A DNA stretch of 64,000 bases from Microbispora catharanthi (GTDB taxonomy: Bacteria; Actinomycetota; Actinomycetes; Streptosporangiales; Streptosporangiaceae), in contig NZ_VDMA02000029.1 of assembly GCF_006334915.2 (NCBI RefSeq), positions 1-64,000 on the forward strand, given 5' to 3'. Positions 8,139-29,403 of this stretch are shown piece after piece. A program made the translations under genes and the position numbers. How positions within the stretch are numbered: position 1 is the stretch's first letter; every line of letters starts with the position of its first letter. The notes below the pieces were generated by a model. It was not told where the DNA came from. It made no database searches and saw only the letters and a program-made list of their open reading frames with translations.

Positions 8139-9356
8139 CTACAGAGGAGTGGAGGCGGTGGTCTCGGGCACGAAGGCGATGCCGTCGAAGTGCTCGGCGA
8201 GCACCGTGGGCATGTAGCCGAGCTTGTAGGTGAACCGCCTCGCCACCGCCCCCCCGTAACTGCGCATGTGAAGGGGCTCGCCGAGCCATCGCGTCACGGC
8301 CTCCGGCCGTGGGCCGCTCCGCAGGTCGATCACGTGATCGCCCGGGTGAGCGGTGGCCAGGCGAGCCTCCACGATCGTCGGTCTCCGGACGAGCGGAACG
8401 CGGAAGGTGACCGGAGGCTTGGCCGGGTTCACCCTGCCGCATCGTCGCCGGCGGGCCCGGAACCGGCCCGCTCCGAAGAGCACGCCGAGTGCGTAGTACG
8501 CCTCGCCATGGCGCTGCCTGAGGTGCAGACCCATCGCGGGCACCGACCCGCCGCTGTGGCCGCCCTTCATGACGTGGCCGTTGTGCGCCCAGAGGGCGAC
8601 CTTGGCGTCCGGGTCGTGCAGGAGCAGGTCCACGTTGTCGGCGAGATAGCGGTCACGGGCGACGCTCACGGTCTGTGCGGGGTCGGGGTGCCGGAGCGGC
8701 CGGCTCGCGAGGTCGGCGCACTGGCGCACGATCCGCGCATGCGCCCGCGCCTCAAACGGGACGGAGGCGCCGGCCAGGAAGTCCTCCACGCGGCGGGCGT
8801 CGGCTTCGATCCGCCGGTCGAGCGGTGGGCCGACGCCCAGGCGCTTTCCGGCGAGGGGAGCGAGGGGGTCGAGCAGGCCCGGCGCGTCATCGCCGAGGTA
8901 GGTACGCAGGGCGTCCAGCGATGTCGCCGGATGCTGCGGGTCGATCCCCACGAACCTCACCTTCCGCGAGGCGGTGCGGTTGTGGTCGCGCAGCCACTCG
9001 ACGACCGCCAGCATCTCCGCCGTGTGCAACGTCCAGAAACCCAGCCCGGCGAGCGCCCCGACCGGATCGCCGGAGCCGCCCTGCACGTAGTCGTCCACGA
9101 CTCGGGACGCCGAGGCGCTGGCCTCCACCGCGAGCGTCGTGAAGCTCAGCTCCTCGACCAGGAACTCCAGCAACCGGTGCCTGATCAGGAAGAACTCCCG
9201 GCTGCCATGCGTGGCCTCGCCGAGCCCCACCACTCGCACGCCGTCCAGTACGACGCGGAGCGGCGCCAGGTCGTCGGTTCCGGCGCCCGGGTTCAGGCCG
9301 TTCAGCGGTATCGCTCGCGACCTGAGCCACTCCGCCACCTCGTCCTCGGTCGTCAT
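8139..9356 (-). CDS. Erythromycin esterase-family protein
   Basis: A 405-aa Ere-like hydrolase. Conserved family motifs include VVGLGEATHGSREFF near residues 30-45 (the His proposed as catalytic in Ere enzymes), FTTLAVEAS, FVGIDPQ and LWAHNGHV. Family members open macrolide lactones, but many relatives act on other substrates. Start ATG 9356 (MTTEDEV) is favoured. An ATG at 9374 also opens the frame, but it lies in the rearranged repeat at 9367-9404, so the native promoter and leader were probably replaced. Confidence 0.82.
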   Translation of the reverse strand: MTTEDEVAEWLRSRAIPLNGLNPGAGTDDLAPLRVVLDGVRVVGLGEATHGSREFFLIRHRLLEFLVEELSFTTLAVEASASASRVVDDYVQGGSGDPVGALAGLGFWTLHTAEMLAVVEWLRDHNRTASRKVRFVGIDPQHPATSLDALRTYLGDDAPGLLDPLAPLAGKRLGVGPPLDRRIEADARRVEDFLAGASVPFEARAHARIVRQCADLASRPLRHPDPAQTVSVARDRYLADNVDLLLHDPDAKVALWAHNGHVMKGGHSGGSVPAMGLHLRQRHGEAYYALGVLFGAGRFRARRRRCGRVNPAKPPVTFRVPLVRRPTIVEARLATAHPGDHVIDLRSGPRPEAVTRWLGEPLHMRSYGGAVARRFTYKLGYMPTVLAEHFDGIAFVPETTASTPL

Positions 9357-9366
9357 GCCGGGCGCG

Positions 9367-9404
9367 CTGGTCATGCGCCCGTGACGGTGCTGCGGCGTTG
9401 GAGG
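9367..9404 (-). repeat. 38-bp inverted repeat, copy B (displaced arsN end)
   Basis: This is the reverse complement of 1777-1814 with two mismatches. Immediately beyond it, 9406-9427 is a 22-bp exact copy of ArsN-coding positions 1555-1576 in the opposite relative orientation. The segment is therefore a mosaic of scraps from the fused arsM-arsN gene or a close relative. Confidence 0.8.
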
Positions 9405-9427
9405 GCTCCGTGTACGTCCACCCCGAT

Positions 9428-9580
9428 AACGCACGTCTCACCGCCCTCGTGGCAGGCGATCAGCGACAGCAGGCGCAGCAATACGGGATCGGCGACGGCC
9501 TTGAACAGCGGAGCGAGCTCGGCGGCCTCGCTCTCGGACAGCGGCGCGCGGCCCAGCGGCGCGCAACAGGCAACGGTCAC
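9428..9580 (-). pseudogene. Truncated ArsR-family regulator remnant
   Basis: Read from a GTG at 9580 on the minus strand, about 50 codons give CCAPLGRAPLSESEAAELAP, then LFKAVADPVLLRLLSLIACH and GGETCV. This is the N-terminal half of the other actinobacterial ArsR type (normally APLSxxxAAELAxxFKALxDPVRLRLLSLI...GGEACVCDL). The frame stops being ArsR just before the metal-binding CDL motif and continues into displaced arsN sequence, ending at 9371. The HTH recognition helix is missing, so it is non-functional. It is a relic of an older or larger ars operon. Confidence 0.75.
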
Positions 9581-11859
9581 CGGCGGTGACGGCTGATCGT
9601 TCCGCCGAGCCGGGCGGGCCGCCACATCAGCAGCACCACCGCCACGAAGGCGAGGGCGACCACCACGAAGAAGAGGACGTACGGGAAGGGGGCTTTCCCT
9701 TCCGGCTCTTCCACGGATGTCGGTTCCTCTACCGGGGCGATGCGATCGACGAGATCCTTCGCGGCCAGCTTGGGGTCGCCTTGGGGAGCGTGCCCGAGAT
9801 CGGTCGCTCCGGCGACCTGGAGCAGGTCCTGCCGCATCGGTTCGTCCGCCGCGCGGTTGACGAGCACGACCAGCCTGCGCTGCGGAAACGGCAGGTCCCG
9901 CGGAGCGGGGCGCTGGTAGCCCTCGAAGGCGCTCACACTCTCGGGCACGATCGCGGCGTCGGCGCGGCCCTCGGCCAGCAGACGCGAGATCTCCTGGGCC
10001 GGCACGGTGGTCAGCCGGACTCCGTGATCGGTCAGCGCGCGCAACTGCTCCCCGCCGATCGTGTTGCGGATGAGGATGTCGTCGCCCTCGCCGGGGTGGT
10101 CGAGGAACCTGCCCGGCTTGACGCCGTCCCTGACGAGCAGGACGTCGGTGCTCGTCACCCGAAGGTCCGCCAGCTCGCTGAGGCCCCGTGCCTGCAGGCC
10201 CTCCCGTACGTCCCTGCCGGAGTACTGACCGCCGCCGACCGACTCGAGGACGTCGAGGTCGTACGCGATGGTCACGGCCGGCACACCGGCGGGCGGCGTG
10301 ACGCTCGTGGGATCGATCGTCACGATGGCCGGGGCGTAGCCGTCGCGGCGGAGCCTCTCGGCGAAGGCCTCGGCGGCGTACCGCTGGTCGGCGGGCGCCT
10401 GGACGACGACCGCCGGCGGCGCAGGGGCGAGGGCCTCCGGTGGGGATTCGCCGGCGTCGCCCAGGGTCAGGAACACGGCCACGACGGCCACCGCGACGAG
10501 CGCGGCCGTGCCCGTAATGATCAACGCCAGGCGCACTCGCCGGTCCGGGGCCCGCCAGGTCCGCCGGCGCTCGGCGGTAGGCGTGCCCATGAGGAGAGCG
10601 AGCTTCTGCCGGACGGTCTCCGGCGTGCTCGGCGAGCAGATCAGGGCGTCGGCGGCGTCCTGGCTGGACTGCCTCCACATCTCCTCGGCCGGGAAAGCCG
10701 CGTCCACGAGCCGCGCGTAGAGCCGGGTCGCGTCATTTCGTGAATCGATCACACTGCGAAAGCAGTTGCGCTGGAGCAGCACCCTCTGGAGGTGCTGCCG
10801 GGTGGTGGGGCTCGTGCCCGAGCGAGCCAGATCCTCGACCGCGGCGCGGACGTCCTTGGCGTATGCGAGCGCGTCGGCCAGCGCCTCGGTGTAGGCGTTT
10901 CCCGCGCCGTTCCGGTACGCCACCGTGGTGTCCGTGGGGGCCACAGTGTCGATGGAGCTCACGGGCAGGGCGGGAGGAGGGCCGGGCGGGGAGTGATCCG
11001 GCTCGGGTTCGGGCTCCGCCGCCACGGAACCGGACTGCTCGACCAGCTGAAGCACCTTGGGCCGGTCCTTCTCGATCGACAGCGGCTCGGTCTGCCGGGC
11101 GAGCCTGGCGATCATCTCCGTCGCCGGGACGTCCGACCGTGTGTAGAACTGGTGGCAGAGTTTCGAGGGCGTCTGGTCGAGGACGCTGTCGGCCGCGCGT
11201 CCCCAGACCACCGTCTGCGCCCCCTCGGGGGCATACCGCGCGAACGACAGCTTGATGCTGTGCTCGCTTGTGCTGCTGGTCCAGGTGGCGGCGGTGAATC
11301 TGGTCCGCGTCCCGTACGGCAGCAGCGCCGCGACGGTGTCCGCGAATCGCAGTCGATCGATCATGGGGACGGTGTCGGCGCCGACGACGCACACGGGCCG
11401 GCCGTTCAGCAGCAGCGCCGCGGCGGAGAGCGTGTCCGGCCCGGGTGCCATGGCCTCCGGGTCGTACGGCGGCACGGCCACGGTCAGCGGAGGCCGCGGC
11501 TCCAGCGGCAACGCGGCGAAGGCGGTGTAGAGCGCCGTGTACGACACCGGCTGATCGACGAGCTGCTCGTACGGCACGTAGAACCATCGGGTGTAGGCGA
11601 TCTTGCGGTTGGCGAAGTCACGGTGACCCGACCACTCCCGGATCGCCAGAACCAGGTAGTGGGAGATCTGTCCGTTCTCACTGATCCTCGCGGTGCCGAT
11701 CGTCACCTGGGGCAGGTCGCCGGCGGTGCTCGCGGTGTAGCGGTGCCTGAGCTTGTCGAACACCCCGCGGTCGAGCCGCCCGTCGCTCCACTCCAGCAGG
11801 CCGTATTCGTCGTAGCTGCCGGGCCGCTTGCCTTCCAGCGCCCACTCGAAACCGATCAC
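9577..11859 (-). CDS. GTPase-associated (GAP1-like) membrane protein with extracellular solute-binding-like domain
   Basis: A 760-aa protein in four parts. Residues 1-270 resemble the N-terminal and middle domains of GTPase-associated protein 1 families (FEWALEGKRPGSYDEYGLLE at the N-terminus). Residues 275-440 are a Pro-rich linker plus a helical domain. A transmembrane helix lies around 442-464. Residues about 483-720 form an alpha/beta domain resembling OpuAC-like periplasmic binding proteins, with a second helix around 725-748. The GTG start at 11859 overlaps the upstream stop as GTGA, so it is the third gene of a coupled trio. The cytosolic part may act on the GTPase next door while the outer domain senses a ligand. 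Family naming is from memory of Pfam GAP1 descriptions; the role is inferred. Confidence 0.65.
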   Translation of the reverse strand: MIGFEWALEGKRPGSYDEYGLLEWSDGRLDRGVFDKLRHRYTASTAGDLPQVTIGTARISENGQISHYLVLAIREWSGHRDFANRKIAYTRWFYVPYEQLVDQPVSYTALYTAFAALPLEPRPPLTVAVPPYDPEAMAPGPDTLSAAALLLNGRPVCVVGADTVPMIDRLRFADTVAALLPYGTRTRFTAATWTSSTSEHSIKLSFARYAPEGAQTVVWGRAADSVLDQTPSKLCHQFYTRSDVPATEMIARLARQTEPLSIEKDRPKVLQLVEQSGSVAAEPEPEPDHSPPGPPPALPVSSIDTVAPTDTTVAYRNGAGNAYTEALADALAYAKDVRAAVEDLARSGTSPTTRQHLQRVLLQRNCFRSVIDSRNDATRLYARLVDAAFPAEEMWRQSSQDAADALICSPSTPETVRQKLALLMGTPTAERRRTWRAPDRRVRLALIITGTAALVAVAVVAVFLTLGDAGESPPEALAPAPPAVVVQAPADQRYAAEAFAERLRRDGYAPAIVTIDPTSVTPPAGVPAVTIAYDLDVLESVGGGQYSGRDVREGLQARGLSELADLRVTSTDVLLVRDGVKPGRFLDHPGEGDDILIRNTIGGEQLRALTDHGVRLTTVPAQEISRLLAEGRADAAIVPESVSAFEGYQRPAPRDLPFPQRRLVVLVNRAADEPMRQDLLQVAGATDLGHAPQGDPKLAAKDLVDRIAPVEEPTSVEEPEGKAPFPYVLFFVVVALAFVAVVLLMWRPARLGGTISRHRR

Positions 11860-12854
11860 CGTGGACCGCCGGCGGCGAGGCGCCGACCGAGCCACAGCAT
11901 GGGCTCGACGACGTTGATGGGATGGACCTGCCCCCGGATCCGCAGCTCCCTGCCCGCCTCCGGCAGCAGGTTCTGGTAGTCGTTCCGGTCGAACGTCTTC
12001 GTGTGCGGCCGTACGTAGAAGCCGATCGACGAGGTGACGAAGAACTCGACGCGGGTGCGGTGGAAGAACTGGTCCAGGGCGTTGACGACCATGTCCGCGT
12101 TGCCGCTGGCGGACACCTCGCACAGCGCCCGGAACAGGTCGCGGGCGTCCTCGCTGGTCACCCGGGGGAATCCGTACTCGTCGTCGGGCGCGGAGTCGAG
12201 CAGGTGCAGCTTCTCCGCGGTCTCGAGCACGCGGGGGTCGTCGAACTTGGTGATGCAGACCGCGACGTGGTGGGGGAGCATCCCGTCCCGCAGCTCTCCG
12301 GTCTCGAGCATCTTCTCGGCGAGACGGGTGAGCGGCGGGTGGAGGTGGTCGAAGGCGTCACCGAGCTCGAACTCCCGGATGGGGTCGAAGAGGAAGACCA
12401 GGCCACGGCTCTTCACCAGGTTGTCCATCAGGCGCCCGCGCAGGTCGTCGCCCACCCCGGAGCCGTTCCCCGTGTGAAGGGGACCGGCGCTGAACAGACC
12501 GCCCGGCGCGTCGACCATGCTGATGCCGATCTTCAGCGGTGGGGTGGGCCGGGCTTTGCGGAGCCACCGGCGCTCCTGCCGCCCGGCCGGCCCGACCAGC
12601 GTCCAGCGGTAGTGCTCCAGGCTCTGGCTCGCCTCCGGGAAGATCTTCCCGTTCGACAGCGCGTTCGTTCTCTCGATGAGGTAGTCGGACGAGGCGGCGT
12701 CGGAGCCGATGATCTTCCAGTCGTCCTTCCGCCGCATCAGCGCGATGTTCAGGGCGGCCAGAAGCGTGGTCTTGCCGCTGCCGGGGGCGCCCCACATGGC
12801 GATGTCGTGGGCCGGTGGTCCCTGCGCCGGGTCGGACTGCATGTCTGGTCTCAC
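11856..12854 (-). CDS. P-loop GTPase (TRAFAC/DO-GTPase-like)
   Basis: A 332-aa soluble GTPase. The G1 loop is WGAPGSGKTTLL (21-32), the G3-like DAPGG is at 115-119, and the G4-like TKFDD is at 202-206, where TKxD replaces NKxD. TSSIGFY (274-280) is a possible G5 element. The length and the long insert between G3 and G4 match GTPases found beside GAP1 and vWA proteins in predicted conflict systems. GTG 12854 overlaps the vWA-like gene's stop as GTGA, and its own stop overlaps the next gene the same way, so fixed stoichiometry is likely. Confidence 0.78.
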   Translation of the reverse strand: MRPDMQSDPAQGPPAHDIAMWGAPGSGKTTLLAALNIALMRRKDDWKIIGSDAASSDYLIERTNALSNGKIFPEASQSLEHYRWTLVGPAGRQERRWLRKARPTPPLKIGISMVDAPGGLFSAGPLHTGNGSGVGDDLRGRLMDNLVKSRGLVFLFDPIREFELGDAFDHLHPPLTRLAEKMLETGELRDGMLPHHVAVCITKFDDPRVLETAEKLHLLDSAPDDEYGFPRVTSEDARDLFRALCEVSASGNADMVVNALDQFFHRTRVEFFVTSSIGFYVRPHTKTFDRNDYQNLLPEAGRELRIRGQVHPINVVEPMLWLGRRLAAGGPR

Positions 12855-14281
12855 TCCGTCTCGTCGAGGAGGGGGAACGGGATGGGGAGGGCGTCGGGCG
12901 CGGCCAGTCCCAGGTCTGCGGCCAGCCCCCGGATGTCGAGGGCGTCGAGATGTGCGAGCGCGTTCGCGCCGAGCTGACGCCAGGCCGGGTGCGCGGAGGT
13001 GTCCTGGCGGTCGCAGATCGCGGCGAGCACGGTGTCCGGCCGGCTCCGGACGCGGCCCAGGAGTAACCGCCAGTCGTGCGGGCGCGGGCAGGGCAGGATC
13101 AGCGACCGGTTCGTACGCGCCGGGTGCGGCGGGCGGTCGCCGACCGTGAGCAGGACCGTGCGCACCTGCTCCGACGTCGCGAGCCGCCGGGCCACGGCGT
13201 CCAGCATGTCCTCCACCTGGGCGGCGTGCGGATAGTAGGGGTAGCCCTCGGTGATCGTGCCGCGCTCCTCCAGCCACTCCAGGGCGGCCAGCGCGCGCTC
13301 GGGCGTGGCCTGCCACGCGGCGACCTCCACCGGATGCTCTCCGGCCGACCGGTGGTCGTAGGAGTGCGCGCCGTACGCCACGAGGGAGACCCGCAGGAGG
13401 CCCGCGAGCTCGGCGGACAGATGACTGACCATCTGGCGTACTCGGCTCAGGCGCTCCTCCACCTTCGCGTCGGGCCCGCACACCTCCACCGCGCAGATCA
13501 GGTGCGCCGGCCCGGCCTTGGGCGGCAGCTGCGACGGCGCCGCCGCCACGAGGTCGCTCCAGCCGCGCGGGTCCCGGGCCAGCTCGGGCACGCCGGTGAA
13601 TCGCACCTTCCCCGGTCGCACCAGCTCGGCCGTCAGCAGGTAACGGCCGGGGGTGAGCCTGGCGCTGTGCACCGACAGCAGCCTGGGCTCCCGGCCCTGC
13701 CAGGTGACCACGGCGAACGCGGTGCCGTACTCGTCGCCGGGCTCGCACCGCACGGGCACCTCGGCCCGGGTCCCGGGAAGGGTGCCGATCGGGAACAACT
13801 GCTTGCTTCCCAGCCGCAGTCGCCCGCTCGCGTGGTCGGCACGCAAGACGACCAGGTCGTACGACCGTGACAGCGGGTCGGAGGCCAGGACATCCTCGAC
13901 GATCGCGATGACCGGCCCGTCACAGGGGAGAACGGCGGCGGGCCGCACCTCGCCCAGCCAGCCGAGCGCCCGGTTGGCCTCCGCGCCGTCAGGAAACGAG
14001 CAGACGAGGACGACCTCGTCGGCGGAGAGCAGGTCGGCGGCCCGGAGCACGGCCTGCCGGGAGGACTCGTGCCCCCACCCCTGCTCGGAGTCGGAGGTCA
14101 GGTCCTCCCATGACGACGACCAGTAGTGGCAGCGAGGCCTGCCGTTGTCGTCCCGGTGGATTCGGAAGACGGTCATGCCGTCGGCGGCGACCTCCACGAC
14201 TGTGAGGCGGCCGGTGGCGGTGAGCCCCGCAACGGCTCGGGCGACGGCCTTGCGAAGCAGAGCCTTGTCGGGCTCTGACAC
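12851..14281 (-). CDS. vWA-like adaptor protein of the GTPase module
   Basis: A 476-aa soluble protein and first gene of the coupled trio. Residues 1-135 are alpha/beta. Residues 140-235 form a beta-rich sandwich with DLVVLRADHASGRLRLGSKQ and PGRYLLTAELV. Residues 258-420 look like a von Willebrand A fold (AHLICAVEVCGP, RVSLVAYGAHSYDH, VRTVLLTVGDRPPHP). The canonical MIDAS DxSxS is replaced by AVEVCGP, so metal-dependent binding may be lost. The C-terminal helical tail is around 430-476. vWA domains typically scaffold NTPase assemblies. The exact domain family is uncertain. Confidence 0.6.
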   Translation of the reverse strand: MSEPDKALLRKAVARAVAGLTATGRLTVVEVAADGMTVFRIHRDDNGRPRCHYWSSSWEDLTSDSEQGWGHESSRQAVLRAADLLSADEVVLVCSFPDGAEANRALGWLGEVRPAAVLPCDGPVIAIVEDVLASDPLSRSYDLVVLRADHASGRLRLGSKQLFPIGTLPGTRAEVPVRCEPGDEYGTAFAVVTWQGREPRLLSVHSARLTPGRYLLTAELVRPGKVRFTGVPELARDPRGWSDLVAAAPSQLPPKAGPAHLICAVEVCGPDAKVEERLSRVRQMVSHLSAELAGLLRVSLVAYGAHSYDHRSAGEHPVEVAAWQATPERALAALEWLEERGTITEGYPYYPHAAQVEDMLDAVARRLATSEQVRTVLLTVGDRPPHPARTNRSLILPCPRPHDWRLLLGRVRSRPDTVLAAICDRQDTSAHPAWRQLGANALAHLDALDIRGLAADLGLAAPDALPIPFPLLDETE

Positions 14282-14499
14282 GGATCCTCCGTTGATTGTC
14301 CTACTCGTCGCTCCCGTCCCCCTATATCCGAACTAGCGGGTAACAACGAAAAGACGACTTGTCATAACGGTAGGGTTCTTGTTGTGTCGATGCGTCGAAT
14401 CATTCTCAGTTTCCCGCAATCTTACGGCGGGGATCTACGATAGCCCGAGTCTCGAGCGTTATGCCACGTTCCAATATGTGCGCGTAGGCGAGGAGAAAC
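14282..14499. promoter_or_regulatory. Divergent promoter region of the GTPase/DUF4407 locus
   Basis: This 218-bp, comparatively AT-rich gap separates the minus-strand GTPase trio from the plus-strand DUF4407-kinase pair. It must hold both promoters, implying coordinated expression. I see no clean -35/-10 pair or large dyad that can be assigned with confidence. An AGGAG ribosome site precedes the ATG at 14500. Confidence 0.4.
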
Positions 14500-15903
14500 A
14501 TGAGGCGGTTTCTGATTGCGCTGTCCGGAGCGCGGCCTGAGGTGCTCGAACGGTGTCCGAGCGAGTATGGGAAGTTCGAGGGCATCGGCGGAGCCGTGCT
14601 CACGACGGCCGTCCTCGCGGTCGTCTCGATGACGTTCGCCCTCAACAGCGCCCTGGGCGTCAACGTCGTCCTGGCCGTCCTCGCCGCGCTGGTCTGGGGC
14701 CTGATGATCCTGAGCCTCGACCGCTGGCTGGTCAGCACGATGAAGGCGGACGCCCCCCGTCGCTGGCCGCTGGCCGTTCCGCGCGTTCTCATGGCGCTCC
14801 TGCTCGGATTCGTCATCTCCACGCCATTAGTGCTCCAGATCTTCCGGTCCGAAATCGATGCCCAAATCGTCCAGATCAAGCAGCAGCGTGCGGACACGTT
14901 CGCCGCGCGGCAGCAGCAGGGCAACGTCGGCAAGGACGTCGGCCAGCTCCGCAAAGAGGTGGCGGACCTGGAGAAAGTCATCTCCTCCGGTGGTGACGTG
15001 CCCATCGATACCGGGCAGGACCCGAACGTCAAGGCGCTGACCGCCGAGCGCGCCAAGCAGCAGAAGCTGGCCGACAAGCACTACAACGAGTGGCAGTGCC
15101 AGCTGTACGGAGGACCGTCGTGTCCGAAGAAGGGCGACGGCCCTCTCGCCCAGGACAGCCGGCGCGCGTACGAGAAGGACAAGCGGCGGATCGACCTGAT
15201 CAACCGGCAGATCGAGGACCGGAAGCGGGAGCTGAACGCCGGCAGCGAGGAGGCCAAGCAGGCCCGCCTCGCGAGCGCGCAGGACGCCCTGCCCAAGGCG
15301 AAGGCGCAGCTCGACGCCGGAATCAAGCGGCAGGCGGACCTCCAGACGTCCTTCGACGCGGAGAACATGGCGACCAACGGCCTGCTCATCCGCATCCAGG
15401 CGCTCAACGAGGTGACCGGCAAGGACAGCAGCCTCGGCGTCACCCGCCTGCTGCTGTTCCTGCTGTTCCTCCTCATCGAGTGCCTGCCGGTCACGATCAA
15501 GCTGATGCAGCGGCCGGGCAACTACGAGAAGGTCCTCGCGCTGGCAGAGAAGCACGAGTTCCGGGACGCGCGGGGCACCTTCGCCTCGCCGGGCGCCTTC
15601 ACCTCGCAGGGCACGGGCGGCCCCGGGACACCTGCCTCGCCCCCGGGTCGCTCGCAGGACGTCTGGCGCATCTGGTCCCGTACGGGCGAAACCGGCCCCC
15701 AACCGGTCGTCACCGTCCCCGAGGACGGCGAGGCGTACCGGGGACCCACCGGCACCCGCGCGGAGACCGTCGGCGAGACCGACGTGTACGACTCGATGGA
15801 GGACCAGGAACTGAGGCGGATGCCGGACGCCAGGACCATGCGGGTTCCTCGCACCGGCGCCGAGCGCCCCGGCGGTGTCGAGCTGCTGCCCGATGACGAC
15901 TGA
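14500..15903 (+). CDS. DUF4407 membrane protein with extracellular coiled coil
   Basis: A 467-aa protein of the DUF4407 type. Two membrane helices lie around 30-52 and 54-74, and a third around 92-114. A long external coiled coil (118-310, rich in Gln/Lys/Asp) carries two Cys at 200 and 208. A fourth helix spans 314-336, followed by a flexible cytosolic tail (340-467) rich in Thr, Pro and Ser that ends at the kinase gene. The tail is a plausible substrate of that kinase. DUF4407 proteins recur beside GTPase and other NTPase conflict modules and may act as membrane effectors. The start has an AGGAG site at 14491-14495. Confidence 0.8.
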   Translation: MRRFLIALSGARPEVLERCPSEYGKFEGIGGAVLTTAVLAVVSMTFALNSALGVNVVLAVLAALVWGLMILSLDRWLVSTMKADAPRRWPLAVPRVLMALLLGFVISTPLVLQIFRSEIDAQIVQIKQQRADTFAARQQQGNVGKDVGQLRKEVADLEKVISSGGDVPIDTGQDPNVKALTAERAKQQKLADKHYNEWQCQLYGGPSCPKKGDGPLAQDSRRAYEKDKRRIDLINRQIEDRKRELNAGSEEAKQARLASAQDALPKAKAQLDAGIKRQADLQTSFDAENMATNGLLIRIQALNEVTGKDSSLGVTRLLLFLLFLLIECLPVTIKLMQRPGNYEKVLALAEKHEFRDARGTFASPGAFTSQGTGGPGTPASPPGRSQDVWRIWSRTGETGPQPVVTVPEDGEAYRGPTGTRAETVGETDVYDSMEDQELRRMPDARTMRVPRTGAERPGGVELLPDDD

Positions 15904-17260
15904 CGCTCCGATGGCGCGCCCGGGGCGGGTGATCAGGGATCGTTACGAGCTGAGGTCCCAGCTCGGCCGCGGCGGCATGGGCACGGTCTGGCTCGCGATG
16001 GACAGGATGCTCGGCCGGCTCGTCGCGCTCAAGGAGGTCCTGCTCACGCCGTACGGCGAGGGGCTCGAGATCCAGCGGGCGAGGGCCCTGCGCGAGGCCC
16101 GGTCGCTGGCCCGGATCAGACATCCCGCGATCGCCGAGATCTACGACGTCTTCGAGGAGGGCGGCTCGCCGTGGATCGTCATGGTCTACGTCGAGGGCGG
16201 CTCCCTGGACGACCTGATCCGGCGGCGGGCGCTGTCCGAGCGCGAGATCGCCGCCCTGGGTCGCGACGTGCTGGCCGGGCTGACGGCCGCACACGCCGCG
16301 CACGTGCTGCACCGTGACGTCAAGCCGGCCAACATCGTGGTGGGCCACGGCGGAAAGGTGGTGCTCGTCGACTTCGGCATCGCGCAGATCGTCGGCGAGA
16401 GCGGGCTCACGTCGCACAGCATCATGCTCGGCACCACGGAGTTCATGGCGCCGGAGCGGATCGACGCGCGTGCGGTGGGACCCGCCGCCGACCTGTGGTC
16501 GCTCGGCGTCACGTTCTTCTGCGCGCTGGAAGGCTACTCGCCCTTCCGGCGGGACAACGCCTACGCGACCGTGCACGCCGTCTGCAACGACGACCTTCCG
16601 CCGCCTCGCCGCCGCGGACCGCTGTACGACGTGATCGCGGGGCTGCTCAGGAAGGACCCCGCGCTCCGGATGGGGGCGGCCGAACTCGACCGCCGGTTGG
16701 CGGTGATCGCCGCCCCGCCTCGGCTGGAGCCGCCGGTCCAGAAGCCGCGGTCCAGGCCGCCGGTCGAGAGGCCGCGACCCCAGCGGCAACCCGCCCGGCC
16801 GCCGTCGCCGCACACTTCCTTACGCAGTGTGGCCGCGGCGCTCGCCGCGATGGCGCCCGGTGCCGCCGGGCGGGCGTTGGACGCCATGGCCGGCGATCCG
16901 TCCCGGGCGGCCGGTGTGCTGGCCCTGCTGCCGTCCGATCAGGCCGGGCGGGCGGTCGGTCACATGACCGCGGGGGGAGCGGCCGCGCTGCTGCGGCAGC
17001 TGCCCGCGAGCCGGGGCGCGAGCATACTGGCGGACGTCCCCGACCGGGTCGCCGCGGACATCCTCAACGCGCTCGGCGTCACCCCCGCCGCGGTCCGGCT
17101 GGTCGAGGCGATGACGACCCGGCGGGCCCGGCAGGTGCTGGAGTACGTGCCGCCGCCGGTCACCGCGGCCCTGCTCCGGGCGACCACGGACGGCCGCGCG
17201 GAGCGCCTTCTGGCCGGGCTCAGCCCCGCCGTACGCGCCCAGATCGCCATCGCCGAGTGA
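15893..17260 (+). CDS. Serine/threonine protein kinase with MgtE-N-like tail
   Basis: A 455-aa soluble Hanks-type kinase. It has the glycine loop LGRGGMGTVWLA (24-35), Lys47, catalytic HRDVKPAN (140-147), DFG (160-162) and the APE-like MAPE (185-188). The catalytic domain ends near 275. A Pro/Arg linker leads to three to four short helical repeats (around 308-455; LAAMAPGAAGRALDAM, VLALLPSDQAGRAV) resembling the MgtE N-terminal superhelix. No membrane helix or PASTA domain is present. The ATG at 15893 overlaps the DUF4407 stop, so the two are co-translated. It probably phosphorylates the DUF4407 tail or GTPase-module components. Confidence 0.85.
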   Translation: MTTDAPMARPGRVIRDRYELRSQLGRGGMGTVWLAMDRMLGRLVALKEVLLTPYGEGLEIQRARALREARSLARIRHPAIAEIYDVFEEGGSPWIVMVYVEGGSLDDLIRRRALSEREIAALGRDVLAGLTAAHAAHVLHRDVKPANIVVGHGGKVVLVDFGIAQIVGESGLTSHSIMLGTTEFMAPERIDARAVGPAADLWSLGVTFFCALEGYSPFRRDNAYATVHAVCNDDLPPPRRRGPLYDVIAGLLRKDPALRMGAAELDRRLAVIAAPPRLEPPVQKPRSRPPVERPRPQRQPARPPSPHTSLRSVAAALAAMAPGAAGRALDAMAGDPSRAAGVLALLPSDQAGRAVGHMTAGGAAALLRQLPASRGASILADVPDRVAADILNALGVTPAAVRLVEAMTTRRARQVLEYVPPPVTAALLRATTDGRAERLLAGLSPAVRAQIAIAE

Positions 17261-17323: not shown

Positions 17324-20300
17324 CTACTGAACGGTGATCTTGTCGACCTCGACCGTGATGCCCTTCACCTGGGGAGTGGAGGTGCCGGTCGTGACGGTGC
17401 CGGTGCCCGACGACACGCCCTTGACCTTGAAGGAGTAGGTGAGCGTGCCGCCGGGGGCGCCCGGCGTGCTGGTGATCCGGTAGTCCTGCGTCGGCGGGCC
17501 GCTGATCTGGCTGCCTGCGGTGCCGTCCGCGTTCTCGGCGCCGACGGTCAGGCCGTAGACCGCCCCCGGGTCACCGGGCAGGTTGCCCGGGTCGTAGGCG
17601 TACGAGATGTCCTCGGCGCCGCCCAGCCCGATCCACTGCTGGAAGACCTTGAGGCTGTTCGTGCCGTACAGGTAGACCTGCCACTCGACGACGAGCCACC
17701 TGTTCACCCCGTCGGTCAGGCTGGCGACGTAGACGCCGGGGGCGCCCGCGCCGTTCAGATCGGTCCAGTACGACGCGAGCACGCCGTTCGGCGGCGTGGT
17801 GTCGGGGAGCGTCTGCGGCGCGAGCTGGATGTCCGCCGAGCCGTTCGTGCCGCCCGCGACCGTGTAGCCGTCGGAGACGACGCCGATCCTGTTGTACGTA
17901 CGACCGGCGTAGGTGAAGGCCGGGACGTTGAAGTTCAGCGCCTCCTCGTCGCCGATGGGGGTGGGGGCGATGCCGAAGGCCGAGAGCGGCAGGTAGCCCG
18001 CCGGGGTCTCACCGGGCGCGATGCTCGGCTTGTCCGGCTGCCTGCCCGCCAGCGTGCCCCTGGCCGTCACGACCTGGCTGCCGATCGTGGTCGCGCCCGT
18101 CGCGCCGGTGAGCCGCAGCTTCGCGTCCAGCGTGCTGAGCGCGGTGACGTCGGTGTCCTCCAGGGTGTTGTTCTGGACCGTGACCGTGCAGGTGGACTCG
18201 CCCGCGTTCTTGGCGATGGTGCTCGGGGCGCAGGTCTGGTCGATCGGCACGGCGCCCTCCTGCCGGTAGAAGGCCACCGGGAGGTGCTGCTCCCGCTTGC
18301 CGCCGACCTGCTTGAGGTTCACCTGGCCGAAGTACTGCCCGTCGGGCAGGTCAGGCGCGGTGATCACCACGGTGATCTTCTGGCTCTTGCCCGGCTTCAC
18401 GGTGAACAGGGGCGGCAGCACCGTGATGTTCGCCCCGCTGACGGTGGTGCCCGTCACCGAGTAGACCAGCGTCTTTCCTGTCGCGTTGACGAGCGTGCGC
18501 TTGGCGCTGATCACACCCGGCATGACGGGCGCGTTGACCGACGGCAGGTTGAGGTCGATCCGGTTCATCGGGTCGGCGGCCGAGGCGGCGTAGTTCGCCG
18601 CGGTCTCGTCGAGAGTCAGTCCGGGGTCGCCCGCCTTGGTCAGGTCGATACGGCCACCGCCGTAGTCGAACGGATCGGCCGGGGTGGTCCGGTCCTGCTT
18701 GGTGACCTTCGTCGTCGCGGTGGTCTCCAGGGCCGACTTGACCTGGCCCGGCGTCCAGTCGGGGTGCAGCGCGAACACGAGCGCGCCCGCGCCCGCGACG
18801 TGCGGCGACGACATCGAGGTGCCGGCGATCACCTGGTAGAGGTTGCCCGGGGGGCCTTCCAGCGGCGACTCGGGGGTCGGGGTGTTGCCCGCCAGGATGT
18901 GCAGGCCGGGCGCGGTGACGTCCGGCTTGAGGAAGTCGCCGCCCGGGCCGCGCGAGGAGAACGTCGTCATCGCGTCGCCCTGCCAGGTGGTCTTCTCGCC
19001 CTGGGTGAAGCTCGCCGTGCCGCCCGGGTGCGCGCTCAGCCAGGCGAGCAGCACGTCGGTCTCCGGCTTGTCGATGTGGACCGTCGGCAGCCAGTGGTTG
19101 TCGGTCATGACGTCGAGCGGCGTGGAGTTGTAGAGGATCATCCCCGCGGCGCCGCCCTGCTTGACCGCGAATCCCTTGAGCACCCGGTTGGGGCCGCGCT
19201 CACAGGCGACGATCTTTCCGGCGAACAGCCCCGGGGGCGCCGGGTTGACGCACAGCGGGTCGTTGTACGGCGGGGCCGACGCGAGCACCACGGGCAGCGG
19301 CGACGAGACGCCCTGCGTGATCGACGCGCCCTTGATCGACGGCCCGCCGGTCAGCGTGATCGTCGACTGGTAGGTGCGGCTCTGCGTCGAGGCCGCCACC
19401 GTGGTCACCCACGGGCCGCGGTGGTCGGTCGTGCCGGCGCCCGGTCCCGAGTTGCCCGCCGAGGCCGACACGAACACGCCCGCCGCGTACGCGTCGAGGA
19501 ACGCGAGCTCGACCGGGTCGCTGTAGGGGTCGGCGCCGCCGCCGACCGAGAAGTTGATCACCTTGACGCCGTCGGCGATGGCCTGCGCGACCGCGGCCGC
19601 CGAGTCGGACTGGTAACAGCCCTCCGCGCCGCAGACCTTGTAGACCGCGACGTGGGCCGCGGGCGCGATGCCGTGGATCGCGCCGCGGTCGACGCCGAGC
19701 GGGTCGGCGTGGTCGACCGGCCCGCCCGCCGACGTGGTGGCGGTGTGCGTCCCGTGGCCGTTGGAGTCACGGGCGCTGTCCCCGTAGACCTCTCCGCCCA
19801 CCACGGCGTTGTAGGTCTCCAGGAACGGCTGGCCGGAGATCAGCTTGTGGTTGCACTGGTAGGGGTCGGCCGCCGGCGTCAGCGGGTTGTCGCCGAAGTC
19901 GCACGTACGCGGGGTGCCGTCCGCCTTCGGCGGGGGAGCCGGGAGCGTTCCCGGGTCGGCGAACGACGGGTGCTCCGGCCACGCGCCGGTGTCGAGGATG
20001 CCGACGATGACGCCCTTGCCCGACGACTTCGCGCCGCCGAGCTGGTTGTAGACGGTGGTCGCGCCGATGAACTCGGGACTGGAGTCGGTGAGGGGCTGCT
20101 CCCGCCTGTCCTCCTGCACGGCCGCCACGCCGGGCAGCTTCAACAGGTCGGCGGCCTTGTCGGCGGGCAGTGTCAGGGCGACGCCGCCGTAGACCGTGCG
20201 GAGCTTCTGCCCCACCTTGACGCCGGGGATCTTCTTGCCCAGCTCACTGAGGAAGGTGTTCTCGATGCCCTCGATGTGCTTCTGGTACTTCGCCGCGTCG

Positions 20301-20653
20301 CCGCTCTTCAGGTTGAGCGACTTCCCGGTGACCGACGGGCTGGTGCCGGGGAGTCCCGGCAGGCCGCCCTTGTAGGCCGCGAGCGCGTCGTAGTCGAGCT
20401 TCACGACGACGCTCGTCCGCTCCGGCGACTTCGAGGCGAGCAGCGCCGTGTCGCTCTTGGCGAGCCGGCCGCTGGCCGACTTGGCGCCCTGGACGCGCTC
20501 GGCGCCCGTCACGGCCGTGGCGCTCCACGACCTCGACGGGGTGGGGGTGGGGTCCGCGGCGGCGGAGGCCGCCGGGATCATCGCTGTCATGAGGCCGAGG
20601 CCGGCGACGATCGCTGTGGTCCGTACGTAGGCAGGTGGGGGCTTCTTCGACAC
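17324..20653 (-). CDS. Secreted subtilisin-like serine protease (S8 family)
   Basis: A 1109-aa extracellular protease. Signal peptide around 1-32; inhibitor I9 propeptide around 78-188; S8 domain from about 200 to 660 with catalytic Asp221 (GILDTG), His300 (NGHGTHTA) and Ser613 (GTSMSSPHVAG), and oxyanion Asn401. A protease-associated insert lies around 450-560. The C-terminus (around 690-1109) has Fn3-like and beta-sandwich modules. GTG 20653 is chosen because GGAGGTG precedes it; an ATG-in-frame extension to 20722 would disrupt the signal peptide. It probably degrades extracellular protein. A hairpin with 8-bp arms (20761-20781) lies upstream. Confidence 0.9.
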   Translation of the reverse strand: MSKKPPPAYVRTTAIVAGLGLMTAMIPAASAAADPTPTPSRSWSATAVTGAERVQGAKSASGRLAKSDTALLASKSPERTSVVVKLDYDALAAYKGGLPGLPGTSPSVTGKSLNLKSGDAAKYQKHIEGIENTFLSELGKKIPGVKVGQKLRTVYGGVALTLPADKAADLLKLPGVAAVQEDRREQPLTDSSPEFIGATTVYNQLGGAKSSGKGVIVGILDTGAWPEHPSFADPGTLPAPPPKADGTPRTCDFGDNPLTPAADPYQCNHKLISGQPFLETYNAVVGGEVYGDSARDSNGHGTHTATTSAGGPVDHADPLGVDRGAIHGIAPAAHVAVYKVCGAEGCYQSDSAAAVAQAIADGVKVINFSVGGGADPYSDPVELAFLDAYAAGVFVSASAGNSGPGAGTTDHRGPWVTTVAASTQSRTYQSTITLTGGPSIKGASITQGVSSPLPVVLASAPPYNDPLCVNPAPPGLFAGKIVACERGPNRVLKGFAVKQGGAAGMILYNSTPLDVMTDNHWLPTVHIDKPETDVLLAWLSAHPGGTASFTQGEKTTWQGDAMTTFSSRGPGGDFLKPDVTAPGLHILAGNTPTPESPLEGPPGNLYQVIAGTSMSSPHVAGAGALVFALHPDWTPGQVKSALETTATTKVTKQDRTTPADPFDYGGGRIDLTKAGDPGLTLDETAANYAASAADPMNRIDLNLPSVNAPVMPGVISAKRTLVNATGKTLVYSVTGTTVSGANITVLPPLFTVKPGKSQKITVVITAPDLPDGQYFGQVNLKQVGGKREQHLPVAFYRQEGAVPIDQTCAPSTIAKNAGESTCTVTVQNNTLEDTDVTALSTLDAKLRLTGATGATTIGSQVVTARGTLAGRQPDKPSIAPGETPAGYLPLSAFGIAPTPIGDEEALNFNVPAFTYAGRTYNRIGVVSDGYTVAGGTNGSADIQLAPQTLPDTTPPNGVLASYWTDLNGAGAPGVYVASLTDGVNRWLVVEWQVYLYGTNSLKVFQQWIGLGGAEDISYAYDPGNLPGDPGAVYGLTVGAENADGTAGSQISGPPTQDYRITSTPGAPGGTLTYSFKVKGVSSGTGTVTTGTSTPQVKGITVEVDKITVQ

Positions 20654-20876
20654 GGCACCTCCATGGAGACCTGTCAGGCCTCGCCGTCCAGGGCGTGGAG
20701 GAGCCGCGCCGCCCACGGGCATGGGAGGGCAGGGCCCTCCCCGTTGGGCGACGAGCGAACGGCCACCCGAGACGGGTGGCCGAAGCTGACTCGGAGTTTA
20801 ACTAGCGATCGTTTTTCCGGCTAGATCGTTCCATGGAGTGATTTTTTCGCTTACGTGACGGGTGGTTCTGTCCGTC

Positions 20877-21599
20877 TCAGGAAACGGTGATGTCTTCGAG
20901 GCGGACCGACACGACGAGGGGGTCGGGGACCCTGGCGTTGTTCTCGTCGCGGCCGTAGATCATGCGGATGGCCGGGATGACCAGCCCCGACACCTCCCGA
21001 TGGCCGGAGATGTAGTGCGCGCTCGGCACGCCGCCGGCGACGTCCACCGTGTAGTCGCGGCGGCGGAGCAGGCCGTCGGCGTCGACGTACAGGACCTGCT
21101 CGGCGCTGTGCGTGGCGATGTCCGAGGGATAGGTCACCTTCAGCCGGCGGAACTTCTCGCCGTCCTCGGTCCACGGCTCGATCTCCTCGGTCCGTACGCC
21201 CGGGAACGTCAGGGAGATCGGCTCGGTCAGGTAGGTCCACATGGCGTAGCCGGTGAAGTAGGCGAGTTGCGGCGCGTTCCAGGGCGTCGTCAGCTCGTGT
21301 CCGGCGAAGGACGCACGCGGGTTCCGCAGTTCCTCGACCACCTCGCCCTCGGTCGTCTCGATCGCGATGCGGTCCGGGGTGAACGCGGTGCGCCGGTCCT
21401 CGCCCAGGAAGGGCGTGTGGCTGGTGAACTGGCGGTGCAGGTCGACGGTCACCGTGACGCCGTCGACGGCGCCGGGGTGTCCCTTCAACGGCCACAGGGC
21501 GCCGTCGGAGAACTGCCGGGCCGAGATGCGCCGGGCCTCCCGCCATCGGGCCGGGCCGCCGTGGGCCTCCAGCACGGTCGTCAGCAGGTCGGTCATCAT
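20877..21599 (-). CDS. Hypothetical protein under TetR control
   Basis: A 240-aa soluble protein beginning MMTDLLTTVLEAHGGPARWR. An AAGGAGTCC ribosome site precedes the ATG at 21599. It is rich in beta-strands with alternating charge (SLTFPGVRTEEIEPWTEDG, VLYVDADGLLRRRDYTVDV), recalling LolA/LppX-like lipocalin folds, but no lipobox or signal peptide is present. A match to the TetR operator lies 17 bp upstream, so it is probably induced together with the TetR and TDT genes. No enzymatic motif is recognisable. Confidence 0.7.
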   Translation of the reverse strand: MMTDLLTTVLEAHGGPARWREARRISARQFSDGALWPLKGHPGAVDGVTVTVDLHRQFTSHTPFLGEDRRTAFTPDRIAIETTEGEVVEELRNPRASFAGHELTTPWNAPQLAYFTGYAMWTYLTEPISLTFPGVRTEEIEPWTEDGEKFRRLKVTYPSDIATHSAEQVLYVDADGLLRRRDYTVDVAGGVPSAHYISGHREVSGLVIPAIRMIYGRDENNARVPDPLVVSVRLEDITVS

Positions 21600-21615
21600 G
21601 GACTCCTTATCAAGG

Positions 21616-21629
21616 TGACTGGTCGTCTT
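21616..21629 (-). promoter_or_regulatory. TetR operator site 1
   Basis: AAGACGACCAGTCA on the minus strand, 17 bp before the hypothetical gene at 21599. It matches operator sites 2 and 3 at 12-13 of 14 positions. Confidence 0.6.
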
Positions 21630-21675
21630 CAATAGGGGAAGTTGCCCGCACATGCCGGCCGGGCTCTCGGTAAGG

Positions 21676-22245
21676 TCAGGCGCGCAACGCGTCGAGGGCG
21701 ATCTCGAGCTGCTCCGCGACGACGGACTGATCGCCGATGGTCTTGGCGCGCAGGGTGGCGCCCTCGAACGAGTCGATCAGGAAGGCCGCCAGCGTCCTCG
21801 CCGGACGGGCCGAGGTGATCTCGCCGGCCTCCTGGCCCTCACGCACCGTGCGGGCCACCTCCTCGGTCCAGTCCTCGAGGATCTCGCGGACCGCCGTGCG
21901 CACCTGGTCTCCGGCGCTGCTGCTCTCGCTGGCGAAGGTGCCGAGGAGGCAGCCGAACTCCACGCCGGTCTCGCGGGTGCGGTCGACCATGGCGACGAAG
22001 TGGCCGCGCAGCCGCTCCAGGGCGGGCCCGTCGCCGCTGAGCACGGCGAAGTTCGCGCCGCGTGCGTAGCGCCGCGCGATCTCGACGGCGAGCGCCTGCT
22101 TGCTTTCGAAGTGGTTGTAGAACGACCCCTTGGGGACGCCCGCGGCGCTGGTGATGTCCTGCACGCTCGCGCCGTTGAACCCCTGCCGGCGGAACACGTC
22201 CTCGGCGCTCTCGACCAGCTTGTTCTTCACGCTTACCTGAGGCAT
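21676..22245 (-). CDS. TetR/AcrR-family repressor
   Basis: A 189-aa regulator. HTH motifs are VKNKLVESAEDVFRRQGFNG, then SVQDITSAAGVPKGSFYNHF (residues about 5-45). The C-terminal domain (LLGTFASE, the helix at TLAAFLIDSFEGA) is the TetR_C type seen in repressors that sense electrophiles such as aldehydes or quinones (YcdC/NemR-like); this is inference. ATG 22245 is preceded at 22256-22269 by the same 14-bp operator found before both flanking genes, so it is autoregulated and governs a small local regulon. Confidence 0.88.
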   Translation of the reverse strand: MPQVSVKNKLVESAEDVFRRQGFNGASVQDITSAAGVPKGSFYNHFESKQALAVEIARRYARGANFAVLSGDGPALERLRGHFVAMVDRTRETGVEFGCLLGTFASESSSAGDQVRTAVREILEDWTEEVARTVREGQEAGEITSARPARTLAAFLIDSFEGATLRAKTIGDQSVVAEQLEIALDALRA

Positions 22246-22255
22246 GGCTTCAATA

Positions 22256-22269
22256 TGACCGTTCGTCTT
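22256..22269 (-). promoter_or_regulatory. TetR operator site 2 (autoregulatory)
   Basis: AAGACGAACGGTCA on the minus strand, 11 bp upstream of the tetR ATG. It is positioned for self-repression. Confidence 0.65.
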
Positions 22270-22283
22270 GGAGTTGTCAAAAA

Positions 22284-23258
22284 TCAGGCGGGCTGGACCT
22301 GTTCCGCGTGGCGGCGGCGCGGCAGGCGGAGCAGGGCGAGCGAGCGGACCGCGATGCCGCCGATGATCACCGTCGCCGACGCCGCCACGAGCCAGCCGAG
22401 CGTCGTGTGCAGTGCCGACGGGGTGAGTGTCAGCAGGCGCACGCCGTAGGTCGCGCTCGCGGCCGTAGTGAAGGTGAAGGCCCAGAAGCCGATCACGAAC
22501 GGGATGTGCGCGTACCTGCGGAGCAGGAAGAGGTGGGGCAGCAGCAGCGCGGCGAGGGTGCCGAGCAGCACCTCGTGCGCGGTGTTCAGTTGCGGGCCCG
22601 CGATCGCCCACCAGGCGTTGCCTGCGACGGCGGGCGGCGCGGAGAAGATCGCGAGCGTCGGCATGAGCGGCCCGGGCAGCTCGGGGCCGGTGGCGAACCG
22701 CACGAGGAGGACGGCGCCGATCAGCAGCCAGAAGAGGATGCCCGTGGAGAACAGCGCGGTGGCCACCCCCCGGTGGCCGATGGTCGCGAGGGACTGCGCG
22801 GCGATGAGCGAGGCCGCGACGGTCGGGAGAAGATACCCGCCGTGCAGCGTCGCGGGCTGGCGCGGCGTGGTGAGCATCGAGGCGACGAACCACGCGCCGA
22901 ACACCGCCGCGATCGCGAGCATCGTCCAGACGAGCGCGGCTCCGACGCCCGGGAGGTACGTCGTGAGGTGGGCCGCGAGGAGCGAGCCGGTGGTGGGGGC
23001 GAGCGCGGCGAACGGCCCGAGGACCGGATGCCGCAGGTCCTCGGCGATGTCACCGAGGCGGGTGACCCTCGCGCCATACCGGGCCAGGGTGCCGGCCCAC
23101 AGTGCCGCCGCCGCCACCCAGAGGGCCTCGCCGACCGCGGGCGGAGCGCCGAGCGCGGGGCCGGCCGCCGTCCAGGTGCCCGCGAGTCCGGAGAGTCCGA
23201 AGCCGATGCCGAGGGTGTTGAGGGGGAGCCGGGTGGGGACCGGCGTCGTGCTGGCCAT
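22284..23258 (-). CDS. TDT-family (TehA/Mae1-like) transporter
   Basis: A 324-aa integral membrane protein with about ten hydrophobic helices, the length and topology of the tellurite-resistance/dicarboxylate transporter family. Family-like motifs include LNTLGIGFGLSGLAGTW near the N-terminus, TGILFWLLIGAVLL, and HIPFVIGFWAFTFT in the seventh or eighth helix. The substrate is probably a small anion (dicarboxylate, sulfite or a chloride-like anion) and cannot be fixed from sequence. Its start follows operator site 3 by 62 bp. It lies upstream of the TetR gene on the same strand. Confidence 0.85.
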   Translation of the reverse strand: MASTTPVPTRLPLNTLGIGFGLSGLAGTWTAAGPALGAPPAVGEALWVAAAALWAGTLARYGARVTRLGDIAEDLRHPVLGPFAALAPTTGSLLAAHLTTYLPGVGAALVWTMLAIAAVFGAWFVASMLTTPRQPATLHGGYLLPTVAASLIAAQSLATIGHRGVATALFSTGILFWLLIGAVLLVRFATGPELPGPLMPTLAIFSAPPAVAGNAWWAIAGPQLNTAHEVLLGTLAALLLPHLFLLRRYAHIPFVIGFWAFTFTTAASATYGVRLLTLTPSALHTTLGWLVAASATVIIGGIAVRSLALLRLPRRRHAEQVQPA

Positions 23259-23319
23259 GGTCGGCCTTCTTTCTGTTCGTGCTTCCCGCGCTCTGGGGCG
23301 AGCGACCGAGGAGACAATA

Positions 23320-23333
23320 TGACCGGTCGTCTT
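23320..23333 (-). promoter_or_regulatory. TetR operator site 3
   Basis: AAGACGACCGGTCA on the minus strand, upstream of the TDT transporter. This copy contains a fully self-complementary GACCGGTC core, so it is probably the strongest site. Confidence 0.65.
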
Positions 23334-23366
23334 AAGCTGTCAATGCCGCCCCCTAAGGCGCAGAGT

Positions 23367-23981: not shown

Positions 23982-24015
23982 GGCCGGTCAGCATAGGAGT
24001 TCACGAGCGTCGTGG

Positions 24016-25787: not shown

Positions 25788-25822
25788 CGATCGAAACCAC
25801 GGATTCCCGATAGGGTGCCCGG

Positions 25823-29390: not shown

Positions 29391-29403
29391 CCCCCCGATG
29401 ACC

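What the first reader, a model, noticed from the sequence alone, without database searches (positions are those of the whole stretch)
9577..17260. A five-gene GTPase/vWA/solute-binding/DUF4407/kinase module, likely a conflict or signalling system
Seen: three GTGA-coupled genes (vWA-like with a degenerate MIDAS, a GTPase with GAPGSGKTT/DAPGG/TKFDD, and a membrane protein whose cytosolic part resembles GTPase-associated protein 1) are divergent from an overlapping pair, a DUF4407 membrane coiled-coil protein and a Hanks kinase. Established: DUF4407, GAP1 and GTPase genes co-occur in predicted NTP-dependent conflict systems in multicellular actinobacteria. Inference: the external solute-binding-like domain senses a ligand, the GTPase transduces, and the kinase plus DUF4407 form the output, perhaps a membrane-damaging or arrest effector. 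The specific combination with a solute-binding outer domain and an MgtE-N-like kinase tail looks unusual.
Basis: partly seen in the sequence, partly recalled or inferred. Interest (0 to 1): 0.82.

Follow-up and report, generated by a model that had tools for sequence, protein, structure and literature searches.

The report
Five-gene membrane GTPase switch module
Five neighbouring bacterial genes, kept together across many soil actinobacteria, look like an unnamed branch of a predicted GTP-powered alarm system, with a membrane protein of unknown function and a protein kinase as its likely output arm.

Summary
The five genes lie at 9577-17260 as described, and 34 of 40 fetched relatives' loci carry all five in the same divergent layout; three of the six exceptions are cut by contig ends.

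The GTPase is a distant DO-GTPase2 relative (profile-profile E 2e-17). P3 carries a GAP1-M-like stretch (weak, E 0.013) behind an N-part matching no known GAP1-N. P1's C-terminal half is vWA-like (E 0.0012), its MIDAS aspartate usually glutamate. DUF4407 and a Ser/Thr kinase with an MgtE_N tail (33 of 33 kinases) complete the set.

The same GTPase type is also the C-terminal domain of SAV_2336 proteins in three VMAP-MoxR predicted conflict systems (L035, L069, L133), once beside relatives of this module.

Against a simple filing: the window lacks the DO-GTPase Walker B glutamate and no GASH or FNIII partner was found. Module copies in the window's genus form one clade, so transfer there is not shown.

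Best filed as a new variant of GTPase-centric predicted conflict systems; function untested.

The parts
12851..14281 (-). P1, 476 aa, vWA-like adaptor. N-part (13547-14281) of unknown fold, C-part (12854-13546) vWA-like without a normal MIDAS
   Evidence: No Pfam family in the window protein and no vWA hit in 34 relatives; C-part vs true vWA domains E 0.0012, seven other templates 0.044-0.62; motif AVE-x-x-G in most of 34, D-x-S-G in L065 and L067
11856..12854 (-). P2, GTPase related to DO-GTPase2 (start at 12854 GTG or 12842 ATG)
   Evidence: Walker A GAPGSGKTT, DAPGG, TKFDD; DO-GTPase2 hit in 37 of 38 relatives at E up to 1, best 2.8e-7; profile-profile vs canonical DO-GTPases E 6.8e-15 and 2.3e-17
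9577..11859 (-). P3, 760 aa, GAP1-like membrane protein
   Evidence: Directly follows P2 as GAP1 follows DO-GTPases; GAP1-M sub-threshold hits in 27 of 48 relatives
11074..11859 (-). Conserved cytosolic part of P3 (residues 1-262): new N-part plus GAP1-M-like stretch
   Evidence: Profile-profile vs canonical GAP1 E 0.013 in the GAP1-M region, others 0.11-0.63; 96% identical to L031 where the rest is 77-79%
9622..10524 (-). P3 TM1 (10468-10524), outer domain (9679-10467), TM2 (9622-9678)
   Evidence: Hydropathy; solute-binding identity inconclusive
14282..14499 (.). Divergent intergenic region, presumably both promoters
   Evidence: Position; no sigma-70-type site by simple scan
14500..15903 (+). 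P4, DUF4407: TM1 14575-14631, TM2 14653-14709, TM3 14785-14841, loop 14842-15447, TM4 15448-15504, cytosolic tail 15505-15900
   Evidence: PF14362 E 3.7e-84; hydropathy gives four TMs in 33 of 37 relatives; loop cysteines C200 and C208 in 37 of 37. Sidedness inferred
15893..17260 (+). P5, Ser/Thr kinase (domain 15944-16687) with MgtE_N tail (16979-17245)
   Evidence: Pkinase E 1.1e-49, MgtE_N E 2.4e-13; K47, HRD, N147, DFG invariant in 33; MgtE_N in 33 of 33

Best explanation
A membrane-linked GTPase switch: a diverged third branch beside the two described types of GTPase-centric (DO-GTPase/GAP1) predicted conflict systems. Shown from sequence: a conserved core of vWA-like P1, DO-GTPase-like P2 and GAP1-like P3, with DUF4407 as the commonest partner and, in the window's family, a kinase with intact catalytic residues and an MgtE_N tail. 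Inferred: the conserved cytosolic part of P3 binds P2 and sets its nucleotide state; the fast-changing rest of P3 (outer domain, tail anchor or soluble, by lineage) takes up the signal; P2-GTP with P1 as adaptor releases or assembles the output; the output is DUF4407 in the membrane under control of its co-translated kinase, and it would stop or kill an infected cell. The conflict role rests on kinship and fusions, not on any test.
For: All five in 34 of 40 loci in one layout. DUF4407 within 10 kb of the GTPase in 56 of 64 GTPase genomes, and 56 of the 59 best DUF4407 matches. GTPase vs canonical DO-GTPase2 E 2.3e-17. GAP1-M-like stretch in P3 in the gene that follows the GTPase. The same GTPase type as C-terminal domain of SAV_2336 proteins behind VMAP and MoxR-like genes in L035, L069 and L133/L156, the position that holds effector domains in VMAP systems (PMC7159879 section 9). 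P3's C-terminal part changes faster than its N-part. Module absent in G178, in two different positions in the genus, and on one Streptomyces plasmid.
Against: HHalign probabilities for P3/GAP1 (3.4%) and P1/vWA (19%) are low. GAP1-N1/N2 are not among the 25 of 30 Pfam families shown for P3 relatives. Window P2 lacks the Walker B glutamate (7 of 38 have it). No GASH or FNIII partner among the five. No known toxin or effector domain. Genus copies are one clade, so no transfer there. No phage or viral-contig match. PADLOC: P1 and P3 none; the kinase matches generic kinase models such as PD-T4-6.
Confidence: 0.5

Rival explanations
1. An envelope or developmental signalling system of sporulating actinobacteria, not immunity: P3 and DUF4407 sense a wall or small-molecule signal, the GTPase and kinase relay it, and growth, division or sporulation responds.
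For: Kept in 64 of 200 family genomes with steady layout; one clade in the genus; membrane proteins and a kinase, no toxin domain; MgtE_N is a domain of a transporter's cytosolic part, not a known effector.
Against: Patchy even in the genus: G178 has none, and G155 and G168 have no DUF4407 match; GTPase fused into VMAP-MoxR systems three times; relation to DO-GTPases.
Confidence: 0.32
2. It is an ordinary GAP1-N2 system of the kinase theme already described by Kaur et al. (kinase, PP2C, standalone vWA), merely diverged.
For: Kinase plus vWA plus GTPase plus GAP1-like protein in an actinobacterium matches the wording of that theme (passage).
Against: GAP1-N2 model not hit in any shown family for 48 P3 relatives; own genome has no GAP1-N2 match; no PP2C among the five; DUF4407 and MgtE_N not mentioned in the main text; canonical GAP1-N2 loci of the same family are of the HSP70 kind in the loci I read (by motif).
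Confidence: 0.12
3. Two unrelated operons that happen to lie back to back (P1-P3, and DUF4407 with kinase).
For: They are divergently transcribed; L070 and L098-L100 lack the kinase, and there DUF4407, where present, is on the core's strand.
Against: Same layout in 34 of 40 loci over many genera; linkage counts; DUF4407 also linked in 6 of 10 loci of another family.
Confidence: 0.03

Closest known systems
GTPase-centric systems, DO-GTPase2 with GAP1-N2 (Kaur et al. 2020, PMC7159879)
   Same: GTPase followed by a GAP1-like gene; GAP1-like protein may carry C-terminal TMs; vWA proteins and kinases as partners; variable components
   Different: N-part of P3 matches no GAP1-N model; Walker B glutamate mostly lost (7 of 38); no FNIII or zinc-ribbon GTPase; DUF4407 and MgtE_N kinase as partners
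VMAP-MoxR-vWA ternary systems (same paper)
   Same: In L035, L069 and L133 a GTPase of this type is the C-terminal domain of the SAV_2336 protein after VMAP and MoxR-like genes
   Different: The window has no VMAP, no MoxR and no SAV_2336 gene in the module
DUF4407 family (PF14362)
   Same: P4 is a clear member (283 bits, cut-off 31.3)
   Different: P4 belongs to a high-scoring subset tied to the GTPase; 47 of 105 DUF4407 matches in the sampled family are not within 10 kb of one
TerY-P triads (vWA, kinase, PP2C; recalled, no call)
   Same: vWA-like protein with a kinase
   Different: No PP2C among the five; GTPase and GAP1-like protein in addition

Membership tests
GTPase-centric (DO-GTPase/GAP1) systems | TRAFAC GTPase of the DO-GTPase family | tested here: met
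   Profile-profile E 6.8e-15 and 2.3e-17; window protein alone is below the Pfam cut-off (16.6 bits of 27)
GTPase-centric (DO-GTPase/GAP1) systems | Conserved glutamate in Walker B | tested here: not met
   Window DAPGG; glutamate in 7 of 38 relatives, in 11 of 11 canonical ones
GTPase-centric (DO-GTPase/GAP1) systems | GAP1 protein with N1 or N2, M and C domains, downstream of the GTPase | tested here: inconclusive
   Position met; M weakly supported; N1/N2 and C not detected among the families shown
GTPase-centric (DO-GTPase/GAP1) systems | GASH (N1 type) or FNIII (N2 type) component | tested here: not met
   No such family in the five window proteins at E up to 1 (list for P2 capped at 25 of 26)
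GTPase-centric (DO-GTPase/GAP1) systems | Variable components and mobile neighbourhoods | tested here: met
   P3 C-terminal types 14/17/14/4 of 49; other partners in other lineages; two positions and one absence in the genus. Transfer itself not shown
VMAP-MoxR-vWA ternary systems | VMAP, MoxR and vWA genes in order | tested here: not met
   Absent from the window's module; met in relatives L035 and L069, and in L133/L156 without a VMAP-C hit
DUF4407 (PF14362) | Score over the curated cut-off | tested here: met
   283 bits, cut-off 31.3
vWA domain | Profile match and MIDAS DxSxS | tested here: inconclusive
   Fold-level profile match E 0.0012 but no Pfam hit in 34 and MIDAS degenerate
Periplasmic solute-binding domain (outer part of P3) | Similarity to SBP families above control | tested here: inconclusive
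   E 0.067 and 0.079 against a control at 0.039; no PDB sequence match of note
Anti-phage defence system | Protection against phage | not testable with these tools
   Needs phage challenge; PADLOC gives only generic kinase and P-loop matches

The most novel reading that the evidence does not exclude
A third class of GTPase-centred bacterial immune switch: a GAP1-like receptor with a new N-part senses infection at either side of the membrane, a DO-GTPase-like switch with a MIDAS-less vWA adaptor relays it, and DUF4407, gated by its own MgtE_N-tailed kinase, is the membrane-acting effector. The same switch has been plugged into VMAP-MoxR systems as their effector-position domain, so two predicted immune networks exchange a core part that the original description held to be unexchanged.
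Probability: 0.3. Interest if true: 0.78.

Novelty: new variant of a known kind. Interest (0 to 1): 0.57.

Why it matters
P1, P2 and P3 of the window match no Pfam or NCBIfam family above its cut-off, and their counterparts on a Streptomyces plasmid are annotated 'hypothetical protein'. Placing them beside the DO-GTPase/GAP1 systems gives them a testable role, gives DUF4407 a strong gene context that I did not find in print (search), and adds three cases in which a DO-GTPase-like domain is the C-terminal part of a VMAP-MoxR system. Kaur et al. state that such core components are not exchanged (passage). If defence were shown, actinobacteria would have a GTPase alarm with a kinase-controlled membrane output.

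Tried and rejected
Horizontal transfer inside the window's genus: not supported. The five module copies used are one clade, support 98/99. What remains is relocation and absence: the module lies left of the gene at 17324-20722 in the window, G187 and G194, right of it in G119 and G065, and is missing in G178.

Solute-binding outer domain: profile search of PDB sequences and profile-profile comparison with two SBP families, no better than a control.

vWA by Pfam: 0 of 34 relatives. P1 against PDB sequences: only chance-level matches. P2, P3, P4 against PDB sequences: partial matches near the P-loop; none; none.

GAP1 with smaller sets: E 0.064; 0.013 with 76 sequences.

Phage records and viral contigs: no match; plasmids: 1 record. 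Promoter scan: nothing. Phylum-wide GTPase profile: 40 of 396 genomes matched, 3 of them (window genome included) near full length, the others partial. Literature on MgtE, kinase, vWA, GTPase and actinobacteria: no paper with four of the five terms.

DUF4407 tail: a D[TA][RH] motif in 26 of 37 tails is suggestive of a kinase site but not invariant, so nothing was built on it.
Full report
WHAT IS THERE. The five genes are real and at the stated places. On the minus strand P1 (12851-14281), P2 (11856 to 12842 or 12854) and P3 (9577-11859) overlap or nearly so; on the plus strand P4 (14500-15903) and P5 (15893-17260) overlap. The 218-base gap between P1 and P4 would hold both promoters. The window is bases 1-64000 of a 116,656-base contig.

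IS IT A UNIT? A search with P2 matched 64 of 200 genomes of the window's family, in 20 of 68 genera. I fetched 40 loci of up to 20 kb chosen from those hits. All five families were present in 34 of 40. L041, L061 and L066 are cut by contig ends; L035 and L069 hold the GTPase inside another system; L070 has DUF4407 about 4.7 kb upstream on the core's strand and no kinase. Strands agreed in 35 of 35 complete sets, window included; order in 34 of 35, the exception being my choice of kinase copy in L059. Pairwise distances of the five proteins correlate at 0.79-0.94, as expected of genes inherited together. DUF4407 also occurs elsewhere: of 105 matches over the cut-off in the family sample, 58 lie within 10 kb of a GTPase match; of the 59 best-scoring ones 56 do, of the other 46 only 2.

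HOW FAR IT REACHES. With the P3 N-part profile 26 of 345 genomes of the class matched: 8 in the window's family, 16 in an unnamed family f92, 2 in f3. In the phylum scan with the GTPase profile 40 of 396 matched but 3 near full length. Partners change. DUF4407 is present in L097-L099 of four Actinomadura loci (L100 starts at a contig end); L099 also has a coiled-coil protein and a double AAA ATPase of SpoVK/CbbX type before P1, and L098 and L100 look the same by gene layout (profiles run on L099). In f92, 6 of 10 fetched loci have DUF4407 with the GTPase and P3-like genes. In L133, L134 and L262 the core goes with a kinase fused to a PQQ propeller, and in L133 and L262 with a further true vWA protein.

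THE GTPASE. GK[ST] is kept in 36 of 38 relatives, TK[FYL]D in 38 of 38. Pfam DO-GTPase2 is hit by 37 of 38 at E up to 1, best 2.8e-7; DO-GTPase1 by 36 of 38; the window protein is below both cut-offs. Against GTPases standing directly before canonical GAP1-N2 genes of the same family profile-profile comparison gives E 6.8e-15, or 2.3e-17 with 65 sequences. The canonical set has the Walker B glutamate in 11 of 11; here 7 of 38, not the window.

P3 AND P1. P3's first 262 residues are conserved. Of 48 relatives 27 hit Pfam GAP1-M at E up to 1, best 6.7e-4, below the cut-off; GAP1-N1 and N2 are not among the 25 of 30 families shown. Profile-profile comparison with canonical GAP1 aligns the same stretch to GAP1-M, E 0.013, seven other templates 0.11-0.63, HHalign probability only 3.4%. 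Weak alone; together with the gene order I take it as probable kinship and as a third N-type. The rest of P3 varies: 14 of 49 have two hydropathy TMs with an outer domain, 17 a C-terminal TM, 14 none, 4 other. Against L031: N-part 96%, linker 77%, outer 79% identical; against L036: 62%, 26%, 30%. Loops often change fast, so this fits a sensor but does not prove one. P1's C-part matches true vWA domains at E 0.0012, seven others 0.044-0.62, probability 19%; the MIDAS D is usually E, while L065 and L067 keep D-x-S.

P4 AND P5. Hydropathy gives DUF4407 four TMs in 33 of 37 relatives, and two loop cysteines in 37 of 37. That the loop is outside is inferred from the cysteines and the basic TM2-TM3 loop. 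The kinase's catalytic residues are invariant in 33, and 33 of 33 have MgtE_N.

LINK TO CONFLICT SYSTEMS. In L035 (genome G155, same genus) the GTPase is the C-terminal domain of a SAV_2336 protein (E 1.2e-111), after a Trypsin-VMAP-M8-VMAP-C gene and a MoxR-like AAA gene. L069 has the same order; its SAV_2336 protein (E 2.2e-127) also bears WD40 and AAA parts. In L133/L156 a caspase-VMAP-M18 gene (no VMAP-C hit) and an AAA gene precede a SAV_2336-GTPase fusion (E 5e-90), followed by a free-standing P3 N-part, a kinase and a P1 relative. In VMAP systems that C-terminal position holds effector domains. On the GTPase tree the L035 domain groups with the stand-alone modules L041 and L042 of another genus (100/99), so the module probably donated it.

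MOBILITY. Against conserved surroundings the module lies on one side of the gene at 17324-20722 in the window, G187 and G194, and on the other in G119 and G065; G178 has that gene and the 31-47 kb backbone but no module. G119's module DNA is 75-78% identical to the window's, its neighbours 85-87%. Yet the genus's module GTPases are one clade (98/99): relocation, loss and faster change, not shown transfer. One plasmid record carries a relative; phages and viral contigs gave none.

MECHANISM. Shown: the set, motifs, linkage and fusions. Inferred: P3 regulates P2, its variable part senses, P1 adapts, DUF4407 with its kinase is the output. The defence role is inferred by kinship and about as likely as not.

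LITERATURE. PMC7159879: outline and abstract, passages, section 27 whole and section 9 part 1. PMC8195603: passages. Others: listings only. I found no paper on this module in those searches; supplements could not be read.

Noticed in passing
window 9371-9580 (-): A 69-residue piece similar to the first half of an Rv2640c-type ArsR regulator (NCBIfam E 1.7e-9, profile 14-62 of 118), overlapping the end of P3; looks like a truncated remnant.
   Followed up: no
window 8139-9374 (-): Erythromycin-esterase family gene (Pfam E 3.8e-57), far below the NCBIfam cut-offs for EreA, EreB and EreD.
   Followed up: no
L048:12551-15277 (-): One protein holds both P1-like and GTPase-like parts; its 774-residue form also has a faint trypsin-type match to Avs1b (E 2.6e-5, 21.6 bits, cut-off 1500).
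   Followed up: partly
L209, L210, L211, L217: Proteins of about 1,170-1,310 residues with two P3 N-parts each.
   Followed up: no
L045, L046, L048, L050, L051, L055, L056, L057, L065, L067: Two P3-type genes in one locus, in tandem.
   Followed up: no
window 20850-31300: Stretch with few matches in the same place in G178, G119 and G187, so the surroundings of the module are variable too.
   Followed up: no
P1, window 12854-14281 (-): Y303, H306, E357, C398 and W404 are invariant in 34 relatives; with the MIDAS lost they may form another binding site.
   Followed up: no
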